The position numbers were made by a program, and so were the translations under genes. A model generated the notes under the pieces. It was not told the DNA's origin, did no database searches, and was given only the letters and a program-made list of their open reading frames with translations. A DNA stretch of 64,000 bases from Natronogracilivirga saccharolytica (GTDB lineage Bacteria > Bacteroidota > Rhodothermia > Balneolales > Natronogracilivirgulaceae): NCBI RefSeq assembly GCF_017921895.1, contig NZ_JAFIDN010000001.1:372001-436000 (forward strand), written 5' to 3'. Of the stretch, positions 40,649 through 43,793 are shown one piece after another. Each line of letters opens with the position of its first letter. Position 1 is the stretch's first letter.

Positions 40649-42076
<1,428 letters not shown>

Positions 42077-42126: not shown

Positions 42127-43317
42127 ATGTCCGACCGATTTCACGTCACTTACCGGCTGACGCTGCACGATGATGAATCCCCGGATGACCGGATTCGTGC
42201 TCTTCAGCTCGAGCAGAGTGCTGAACTGCCTGATGCAGTGGTGCAGGCTATGGACATGGATCATGTAACCGGCGATGTGATCCGCACGGATTTCCTGGAT
42301 CCGCTGCAACTGGATGTTACCATTGCCTGGCCGGCATCCAATCATGGCGAAGAAATTACCCAGCTCCTTAATATCCTCTTCGGGAACATCTCCATGAAAC
42401 AGGGCATTGCCATTGTCGACATACAGTGGGATGATCTTGCACCGCACCTTCTGGGCGGACCTTCCCTGGGCATTGAAGCCCTTCGCGCCCGTTGGCAGAT
42501 ACCGGATCGTGCGCTAAGCTGCACTGCACTCAAGCCAATGGGGCAGAACACCTCAGAACTTGCCGAATCGGCCTTCCGCTTTGCATTGGGAGGCATCGAC
42601 ATAATCAAGGACGATCACGGACTTGCCGATCAGAGCCATGCTCCGTTCGCCGACCGCGTTGCAGCCTGTGTCAGGGCGATGGATAAAGCAGCTCAAAAAA
42701 CCGGCCGCCGAAGCCGGTATTTTCCGAATATTACAACAGATCATTACCGGATCGGAGAGCGATATGAACAGGCAGCTGAAGCAGGCGCAGACGGAGTTCT
42801 GCTTGCTCCCATGCTGACCGGGCTTTCCGTCATGCATCAGCTGGCGCAAAACAGCACGGATTTGCCCGTCATGGCACACCCCGCTTTCAGCGGAACAATC
42901 ATAACGCACGCGACATCGCCGGGGTATGCACCGGGTTTTGCCCGGAAATCCGGCACCGAACCAACTGCTTCACGGACAGATCCGGAACGCTGTCACGGAT
43001 TTGATCCCGGGCTGTTTTACGGAGCATTATGGCGCGCGCTGGGTGCCGATTTTGTGATTTATCCCAATACAGGGGGACGGTTTTCTTTTCCCTATGAAAC
43101 CTGTTCGGCCATAAACCAGCAGGCAAGAAGAACCGATCTGCCATTTAAAACGTGTTTTCCCGTTCCCGGTGGCGGCATGAAACACAGCCGCATGGGTTAC
43201 TGGCTTGAACAGTACGGCGATGACACCACCTTTCTCATGGGGGGAAGCCTTTATGAGGATTCGAGGGGAATAGCTGAAGCCTCACGTTCGTTTTTACAGT
43301 CACTGATGCATAAGTAA
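42127..43317 (+). CDS. RuBisCO-like protein (form IV)
   Basis: A 396-residue homologue of the RuBisCO large subunit. The first active-site strand reads CTALKPMGQ (the Lys of TxKP is kept, the next catalytic Lys is Met). The metal-site motif is GGIDIIKDDHGLADQ, KDDH instead of KDDE. Later come MAHPAFSG, YPNTGGRFSFPYETC and FPVPGGGMK, where true RuBisCO has the serine-containing SGG. These losses exclude CO2 fixation. Known RLPs act as enolases or isomerases in methylthioribose salvage, or in apionate breakdown. The cupin gene that follows after 14 bases favours methylthioribulose-1-phosphate isomerase activity, as in Rhodospirillum rubrum; this is inference. Confidence 0.85.
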   Translation: MSDRFHVTYRLTLHDDESPDDRIRALQLEQSAELPDAVVQAMDMDHVTGDVIRTDFLDPLQLDVTIAWPASNHGEEITQLLNILFGNISMKQGIAIVDIQWDDLAPHLLGGPSLGIEALRARWQIPDRALSCTALKPMGQNTSELAESAFRFALGGIDIIKDDHGLADQSHAPFADRVAACVRAMDKAAQKTGRRSRYFPNITTDHYRIGERYEQAAEAGADGVLLAPMLTGLSVMHQLAQNSTDLPVMAHPAFSGTIITHATSPGYAPGFARKSGTEPTASRTDPERCHGFDPGLFYGALWRALGADFVIYPNTGGRFSFPYETCSAINQQARRTDLPFKTCFPVPGGGMKHSRMGYWLEQYGDDTTFLMGGSLYEDSRGIAEASRSFLQSLMHK

Positions 43318-43331
43318 TTAATACCAGAACC

Positions 43332-43793
43332 ATGGCTGATCAATCAAAAATTATCCGCAATGAGGAATTTAACTGGCCGGGCATTCAAAAGAAAAAGTAC
43401 AAGCCTGTTCCAGACCGCTACGACAGTGTTACACGCTACGTATTGTTAGGGGAAAATGATGATGAGCAAGGGCTTAACTTCCAGACCCGGTACTTTGAAA
43501 TCGGAACGGACGGATACTCTTCACTTGAAAGACACCGTCACCCTCACACCGTTATCATTGTGCGCGGTGAGGGAAGTATGATTCTCGGAAATGAGTATCA
43601 TCAGCTGGATACATTCGACACGGTTTACATCGCGCCGGAGACTGTCCACCAGTTTCATGCTGACCGGGGCAGTCCGCTTGGCTTTATCTGTATTGTCGAC
43701 CGCTACCGTGATCGTCCCGAAGTGCCGGCAAGCCGGCATGAACTCAAATCCTGGATTCCCGATCCGGATGTGCGCAATAAAGCCCGGTTATAG
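43332..43793 (+). CDS. Cupin-domain protein paired with the RuBisCO-like protein
   Basis: A 153-residue single cupin. Motif 1 reads SLERHRHPHTVIIVRGEGSM with three closely spaced histidines, and motif 2 reads DTVYIAPETVHQFHAD, giving the usual metal-binding set. The N-terminal 60 residues carry a conserved-looking NFQTRYFEIGTDGYSS strand pair. In R. rubrum a cupin beside the RLP gene is a 1-methylthio-xylulose-5-phosphate methylsulfurylase that yields deoxyxylulose phosphate and methanethiol. The same role here is proposed from the gene pairing; a sugar isomerase or dioxygenase is the alternative. Confidence 0.75.
   Translation: MADQSKIIRNEEFNWPGIQKKKYKPVPDRYDSVTRYVLLGENDDEQGLNFQTRYFEIGTDGYSSLERHRHPHTVIIVRGEGSMILGNEYHQLDTFDTVYIAPETVHQFHADRGSPLGFICIVDRYRDRPEVPASRHELKSWIPDPDVRNKARL

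What the first reader, a model, noticed from the sequence alone, without database searches (positions are those of the whole stretch)
42127..43793. RuBisCO-like protein and cupin side by side: possible methylthioadenosine-isoprenoid shunt
In Rhodospirillum rubrum an RLP isomerises methylthioribulose-1-phosphate and a neighbouring cupin removes methanethiol to give deoxyxylulose-5-phosphate. The same two families sit 14 bases apart here, directly after purA. If the parallel holds, sulfur and isoprenoid metabolism are linked in a lineage where this has, to my knowledge, not been shown.
Basis: partly seen in the sequence, partly recalled or inferred. Interest (0 to 1): 0.75.

Follow-up and report, generated by a model that had tools for sequence, protein, structure and literature searches.

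The report
Sulfur-to-isoprenoid salvage gene pair
Two neighbouring genes in a salt-lake-type bacterium of the Balneolales almost certainly form the known RubisCO-like-protein/cupin pathway that turns a sulfur-containing waste product into a building block for isoprenoids; the pathway itself is not new, but it had not been reported as a conserved trait of this lineage.

Summary
Observation confirmed. RLP (42127-43317) and cupin (43332-43793) lie 14 bases apart, 50 bases after purA; purA-RLP-cupin is conserved across Balneolales, including cultured Fodinibius. The RLP groups with R. palustris RLP (3QFW, DeepYkr type), apart from MtnW, Photo and apionate-decarboxylase (OiaX) clades. The cupin's best structural matches are 3KGZ, 3JZV (Rru_A2000, the characterised R. 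rubrum methylsulfurylase) and 3IBM (Halorhodospira). The genome has MtnA, Dxs, AdoMet decarboxylase and O-acetylhomoserine sulfhydrylase, and no MtnD, MtnB or MtnN. RLP, cupin and MtnA occur and vanish together among relatives. Gap: no MTA phosphorylase passes its curated cut-off; a purine-nucleoside phosphorylase may stand in. BshC is present, so bacillithiol probably replaces glutathione. The chemistry is known (R. rubrum, R. palustris) and the pair was already noted in Halorhodospira, Nitrococcus and Meiothermus; novelty is the lineage and order-wide synteny. Most interesting by-catch: a sister RLP clade (Bacillota, Lokiarchaeota, Nitrospiria, Chloroflexota, rhizobial plasmids) lacks the cupin and mostly has a split transketolase/Dxs-like pair in its place.

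The parts
40796..42076 (+). purA, adenylosuccinate synthetase; conserved upstream neighbour of the pair
   Evidence: ORF; same neighbour in most Balneolales loci. Start at 40796 chosen by homology ([18 protein letters not shown]).
42127..43317 (+). RLP, form IV 'DeepYkr' type: predicted 5-methylthioribulose-1-phosphate 1,3-isomerase; KDDHG motif (K161, D163, H164), K136, H251, P252, R318
42913..42981 (+). disordered, hypervariable insertion (residues 263-285 of the RLP) after the HPAFSG motif, seen in the window's family and not in other Balneolales RLPs compared
   Evidence: pLDDT under 50; absent from other Balneolales RLPs
43332..43793 (+). cupin: predicted 1-methylthioxylulose-5-phosphate methylsulfurylase; invariant E66, H68, H70, H72, H106, C120
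43858..43930 (+). tRNA gene (GCC anticodon read by eye), after the cupin; a tRNA also follows the cupin in four Fodinibius loci

Best explanation
[quoted passage not shown] MTA (from spermidine synthesis) is split to adenine and 5-methylthioribose-1-phosphate, probably by a purine-nucleoside phosphorylase; MtnA (same contig, about 384 kb away) makes 5-methylthioribulose-1-phosphate; the RLP isomerises it to 1-methylthioxylulose-5-phosphate; the metal cupin, with a low-molecular-weight thiol (here probably bacillithiol), removes the methylthio group, giving 1-deoxyxylulose-5-phosphate (DXP) for the MEP pathway; the methanethiol released later is fixed to methionine by O-acetylhomoserine sulfhydrylase or lost. 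Shown here: genes, synteny, clade, fold, co-occurrence, presence or absence of pathway genes. Inferred: every reaction, the phosphorylase and the thiol.
For: RLP nearest to R. palustris RLP 3QFW by sequence, fold and tree; 3QFW is taken to be RLP1, shown to make 1-methylthioxylulose-5-P (PMC5893883), because 2QYG is titled rlp2. Cupin matches Rru_A2000, the methylsulfurylase (PMC4334135, PMC4958253). Genome: MtnA 435 bits (cut-off 279), Dxs 810 bits, AdoMet decarboxylase, OAH sulfhydrylase 682 bits, BshC; no MtnD, MtnB, MtnN. Co-occurrence in 26 relatives of at least 90% completeness, as both / RLP only / other only / neither: RLP-MtnA 19/0/1/6 (p 3e-5), RLP-cupin 18/1/0/7 (p 1.2e-5), not corrected for kinship; the one RLP without cupin sits at a contig end.
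Against: No MTA phosphorylase over the curated cut-off in any of 41 genomes and no MtnN in this one, so step 1 is unassigned. RLP only 37% identical to 3QFW; the R. rubrum RLP itself could not be compared. The characterised cupin uses glutathione, whereas these genomes carry BshC (gshA/gshB not searched). Neither enzyme has been assayed from this lineage.
Confidence: 0.86

Rival explanations
1. The RLP is an MtnW-type enolase in the universal methionine salvage pathway and the cupin is an acireductone dioxygenase or unrelated cupin.
For: RLP scores best against MtnW models among NCBIfam families (187 and 161 bits).
Against: Far below the MtnW cut-offs (409, 514 bits); separate clade; Glu204 replaced by His164 while MtnW keeps Glu; no MtnB or MtnD in the genome; cupin is not ARD.
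Confidence: 0.02
2. The RLP is a 3-oxo-isoapionate-4-phosphate decarboxylase (OiaX) in sugar breakdown.
For: OiaX-type RLPs next to a DUF1537-like kinase gene exist in this phylum, one (L135) in a genome of the same order.
Against: OiaX score 61 bits against cut-off 700; separate clade at 100/100 support; no such kinase nearby; the neighbour is the methylsulfurylase-type cupin.
Confidence: 0.01
3. The main substrate is the 5'-deoxyadenosine product of radical SAM enzymes: MtnA makes 5-deoxyribulose-1-phosphate and the RLP converts it straight to DXP; the cupin handles only a minor MTA stream.
For: Same chemistry without the methylthio group; salvage kinase and phosphorylase enzymes are reported to be promiscuous for 5-deoxy substrates (PMC6079011, PMC8102628); MtnP is not identified. 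Inference only.
Against: The RLP is nearly always paired with a methylsulfurylase-type cupin, which that route does not need; no literature on RLP with this substrate was found.
Confidence: 0.06
4. A variant of the best explanation in physiology, not in enzymology (so its probability overlaps): the pair is kept for MTA detoxification, methanethiol is vented and DXP is incidental.
For: In R. [quoted passage not shown] Dxs is present, so the shunt is not needed for isoprenoids.
Against: OAH sulfhydrylase is present.
Confidence: 0.3

Closest known systems
Rhodospirillum rubrum MTA-isoprenoid shunt (RLP Rru_A1998, cupin Rru_A2000)
   Same: Same two families, neighbouring genes; MtnA and OAH sulfhydrylase in the genome
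   Different: No MtnP passes its cut-off here; BshC suggests bacillithiol instead of glutathione; pair sits behind purA; lineage is Balneolales
Rhodopseudomonas palustris RLP1 / cupin (3QFW, 3KGZ; RPA2169/RPA2170)
   Same: Among the nearest solved relatives of both proteins; same KDDHG motif; same side of the tree as all cupin-linked RLPs
   Different: 37% and 41% identity; R. palustris also has the Ald2 DHAP-methanethiol shunt, and no MtnB/Ald2-type protein was found here with the MtnB model
Halorhodospira RLP-cupin pair (Hhal_0468 cupin, 3IBM)
   Same: RLP immediately followed by the cupin in Halorhodospira loci; 3IBM is the best sequence match of the cupin
   Different: No purA in front; Gammaproteobacteria
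MtnW (2,3-diketo-5-methylthiopentyl-1-phosphate enolase)
   Same: Sister clade in the RuBisCO superfamily, methionine salvage
   Different: Different clade, Glu instead of His at the fourth position of the KDDx motif, belongs to a pathway whose MtnB and MtnD are missing here
Split-transketolase RLP clusters (Clostridium drakei, Agrobacterium plasmid, Lokiarchaeota)
   Same: Sister clade with the same KDDHG motif, next to mtnA/mtnK in several
   Different: No cupin in the flanking DNA held; a split transketolase/Dxs-like pair instead

Membership tests
DeepYkr-type RLP (5-methylthioribulose-1-P 1,3-isomerase) | Groups with a biochemically shown member rather than with MtnW, Photo, OiaX or RuBisCO | tested here: met
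   All RLPs of this type incl. 3QFW form one branch (UFB/SH-aLRT 99/98), MtnW sister, OiaX and Photo apart
DeepYkr-type RLP (5-methylthioribulose-1-P 1,3-isomerase) | Active-site pattern: K175, K201, D203 kept; Glu204 to His; Arg295 to Pro | tested here: met
   K136, K161, D163, H164, P252; H164 invariant in 26 sequences and in 3QFW, Glu in MtnW/Photo/OiaX/RuBisCO
DeepYkr-type RLP (5-methylthioribulose-1-P 1,3-isomerase) | Converts MTRu-1-P to MTXu-5-P and MTRu-5-P at 3:1 | not testable with these tools
   needs assay
Cupin MTXu-5-P methylsulfurylase | Homology and fold shared with Rru_A2000 | tested here: met
   E 1.2e-23 by sequence; Foldseek rank 2, E 1e-13, 36% identity
Cupin MTXu-5-P methylsulfurylase | Cupin metal-site histidines and family-specific invariant residues | tested here: met
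   E66, H68, H70, H72, H106, C120 invariant in 21 sequences; metal binding itself not tested
Cupin MTXu-5-P methylsulfurylase | Thiol-dependent release of methylthiol giving DXP | not testable with these tools
   needs assay; thiol likely bacillithiol since BshC is present
MTA-isoprenoid shunt (pathway) | MtnA present | tested here: met
   435 bits, cut-off 279
MTA-isoprenoid shunt (pathway) | MTA phosphorylase (or MtnN plus MtnK) present | tested here: inconclusive
   No MTAP over cut-off and no MtnN; two purine-nucleoside phosphorylases; MtnK not searched
MTA-isoprenoid shunt (pathway) | mtnB and mtnD absent | tested here: met
   no match at E 1e-3 in own genome
MTA-isoprenoid shunt (pathway) | mtnC absent | not tested
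MTA-isoprenoid shunt (pathway) | Outlets: MEP pathway and O-acetylhomoserine sulfhydrylase | tested here: met
   Dxs 810 bits, OAHS 682 bits, both over cut-off; IspC not searched
OiaX (3-oxo-isoapionate-4-P decarboxylase) | Falls in the OiaX clade / passes the OiaX cut-off | tested here: not met
   61 bits against 700; separate clade
MtnW enolase | Passes MtnW cut-off and belongs to its clade | tested here: not met
   161 bits against 513.6; separate clade

The most novel reading that the evidence does not exclude
In these bacillithiol bacteria the RLP serves two salvage streams: 5-deoxyribulose-1-phosphate from 5'-deoxyadenosine is isomerised directly to DXP, while MTA-derived sugar goes through the RLP and a bacillithiol-dependent cupin, with one promiscuous purine-nucleoside phosphorylase feeding both in place of MtnP.
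Probability: 0.2. Interest if true: 0.65.

Novelty: new member of a known kind. Interest (0 to 1): 0.4.

Why it matters
It makes the oxygen-independent MTA-isoprenoid shunt a probable default route for sulfur salvage in the Balneolales, with cultured Fodinibius species in which it can be tested, and predicts a methanethiol source in saline and alkaline settings. It raises two concrete questions: which enzyme opens MTA when MtnP and MtnN are missing, and which thiol the cupin uses. The comparison also exposed a sister RLP family in which a split transketolase takes the place of the cupin, which may be an undescribed way of releasing methanethiol.

Tried and rejected
MtnW and OiaX identities for the RLP, rejected by cut-offs and two trees. 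MTAP: only two PNPs found; PNP1 carries Asp where PNP2 (and, from memory, human PNP) has Asn, but PNP1 is also present in relatives without RLP and MtnA, so it is a candidate and not a diagnosis. MtnD-like hits in G030 and G020 are partial cupin-barrel matches. G036 seemed to lack the cupin beside its RLP, but it lies about 9.5 kb away. G034 appears to lack it only because its RLP is at a contig end. The original R. rubrum papers (Erb 2012, Warlick 2012) are not held. The R. rubrum RLP sequence could not be obtained, so R. palustris 3QFW was used. No literature on the split-transketolase cluster was found.

Full report
What is there. The first is a RuBisCO-superfamily protein, the second a single-domain cupin. 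The window lies in a 3.75 Mb genome, 97% complete; the nearest named relatives of its RLP come from Balneolales metagenome genomes and, further off, cultured Fodinibius.

Which RLP. By sequence the best solved match is 3QFW, an RLP of R. palustris (E 1.8e-58), ahead of MtnW structures (E 1.7e-39). It falls far below the NCBIfam cut-offs for MtnW (161 of 513.6 bits), form III RuBisCO (105 of 497) and the apionate-pathway decarboxylase OiaX (61 of 700). In two maximum-likelihood trees it sits with 3QFW, Halorhodospira and other cupin-linked RLPs; MtnW is the sister group, while OiaX (recognised here by a neighbouring kinase gene) and the Chlorobium-type Photo RLPs are separate. In the second tree all cupin-linked RLPs form one side of a branch in 100% of 200 bootstrap trees. 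Its active site keeps the lysines and aspartate equivalent to K175, K201 and D203 of RuBisCO but has His for Glu204, Pro for Arg295 and Arg at the K334 column; His164 is invariant in 26 aligned relatives and present in 3QFW, while MtnW, Photo, OiaX and RuBisCO have Glu. The predicted structure is confident (pLDDT 90.7) except residues 263-285; the top PDB match is 3QFW. 3QFW is taken to be RLP1 because 2QYG is titled rlp2 and R. palustris has two RLPs; RLP1 was shown to make 1-methylthioxylulose-5-phosphate in vitro and in vivo (PMC5893883).

Which cupin. Sequence hits are 3IBM (Halorhodospira halophila), 3KGZ (R. palustris) and 3JZV, which is Rru_A2000 of R. rubrum; these three proteins are also the first three found by fold. 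Rru_A2000 is the methylsulfurylase that turns methylthioxylulose-5-phosphate into DXP, with glutathione as methylthiol acceptor (PMC4334135, PMC4958253). Glu66, His68, His70, His72, His106 and Cys120 are invariant over 21 cupins from more than one phylum.

Genome context. purA-RLP-cupin is conserved in Balneolales across several families. Own genome: MtnA 435 bits, on the same contig but about 384 kb away; AdoMet decarboxylase, hence MTA production; Dxs 810 bits; O-acetylhomoserine sulfhydrylase 682 bits; BshC. Missing: MtnD, MtnB, MtnN. MtnC, MtnK and IspC were not searched. Among 26 relatives at least 90% complete, every RLP genome has MtnA and all but one have the cupin, the exception being cut by a contig end; six genomes lack all three, and one (G027) has MtnA alone. 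The p values (3e-5, 1.2e-5) ignore kinship.

The gap. No protein passes the MTA phosphorylase cut-off in any of 41 genomes; two purine-nucleoside phosphorylases do exist. One has Asp in the base-recognition motif (ITDE instead of ITN), which from general knowledge of PNP and MTAP would favour adenine nucleosides, but it is also present in relatives that lack the rest, so its role is inference. A purine-nucleoside phosphorylase or a YlmD-type enzyme (from memory) could open MTA.

The thiol. The R. rubrum enzyme uses glutathione. BshC is found in 38 of 41 genomes, including all 26 of good quality, so bacillithiol is the likely partner; PMC6302742 raised this possibility in general terms. Glutathione genes were not searched.

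Mechanism. MTA to 5-methylthioribose-1-P (phosphorylase, unassigned), to 5-methylthioribulose-1-P (MtnA), to 1-methylthioxylulose-5-P (RLP), to DXP plus a methylthio-thiol adduct (cupin), then methanethiol to methionine (OAH sulfhydrylase). Gene presence is shown; reactions are inferred from characterised homologues. Since Dxs is present the shunt adds to, and does not replace, normal DXP supply; whether its main value is detoxification, sulfur recovery or isoprenoid carbon is open.

Novelty. Pathway and enzymes are known. PMC4958253 already lists RLP-cupin pairs in R. palustris, Meiothermus, Nitrococcus and Halorhodospira, and PMC10663253 scanned genomes for both genes. No paper on this pair in Balneolales was found. 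It is a new member of a known kind with order-wide conserved synteny.

By-catch. A scan of species genomes gave 525 relatives. Nine loci of the sister clade (Bacillota, Lokiarchaeota, Chloroflexota, Nitrospiria, Methylomirabilota) have no cupin in the flanking DNA held (up to 4 kb each side); six carry a split transketolase immediately upstream of the RLP, three of these behind mtnK-mtnA. Rhizobial plasmids have sugar transporter genes, then mtnK-mtnA-(Dxs-like N half)-(transketolase C half)-RLP, and these RLPs join that clade and carry KDDHG. Clostridium drakei has SAM riboswitches beside the cluster. A plausible reading (inference) is that a thiamine-diphosphate enzyme cleaves 1-methylthioxylulose-5-phosphate and expels methanethiol, replacing the thiol-dependent cupin. 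No description was found. This deserves its own study.

Noticed in passing
L115, L118, L122, L125, L128, L132, L184 (6062-9119), L185 (6056-9119): A sister clade of this RLP lacks the cupin and instead has a split transketolase/Dxs-like gene pair directly upstream of the RLP, often behind mtnK-mtnA, in Bacillota, Lokiarchaeota, Nitrospiria, Chloroflexota and rhizobial plasmids; possibly an undescribed methanethiol-releasing salvage route.
   Followed up: partly
L132 5239-5351 and 8101-8212: Two SAM riboswitches (91 and 88 bits) beside the Clostridium drakei mtnK-mtnA-transketolase-RLP cluster.
   Followed up: no
window 42913-42981; L010, L011, L012: RLPs of the window's family carry a hypervariable, disordered insertion after HPAFSG, and some (L011, L012) further low-complexity inserts in the N-terminal half, absent from other Balneolales RLPs compared.
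   Followed up: partly
G021, G024, G030, G033, G038, G040 (genus codes g11, g15): High-quality Balneolales genomes that lack RLP, cupin and MtnA together; one of them (G040) has an MtnN-type nucleosidase instead.
   Followed up: partly
G027:C1:1455438-1456427 (L014): MtnA without RLP or cupin in a 99% complete relative; the fate of its methylthioribulose-1-phosphate is unclear.
   Followed up: no
L027:7661-8500 and L028:7606-8466: Two purine-nucleoside phosphorylases; the first has Asp (ITDE) where the second has Asn (ITN) in the base-recognition motif, a candidate for MTA or adenosine phosphorolysis.
   Followed up: partly
G313 (L135): A genome of the same order holds both this RLP type and an OiaX-type apionate-pathway RLP next to its kinase gene.
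   Followed up: no
G036:C4 1752078-1753161 and 1762685-1763128; L068: RLP separated from purA, with the cupin about 9.5 kb away in G036; the RLP of L068 has neither purA nor cupin within 4 kb; a rearranged arrangement in one Balneolaceae group.
   Followed up: partly
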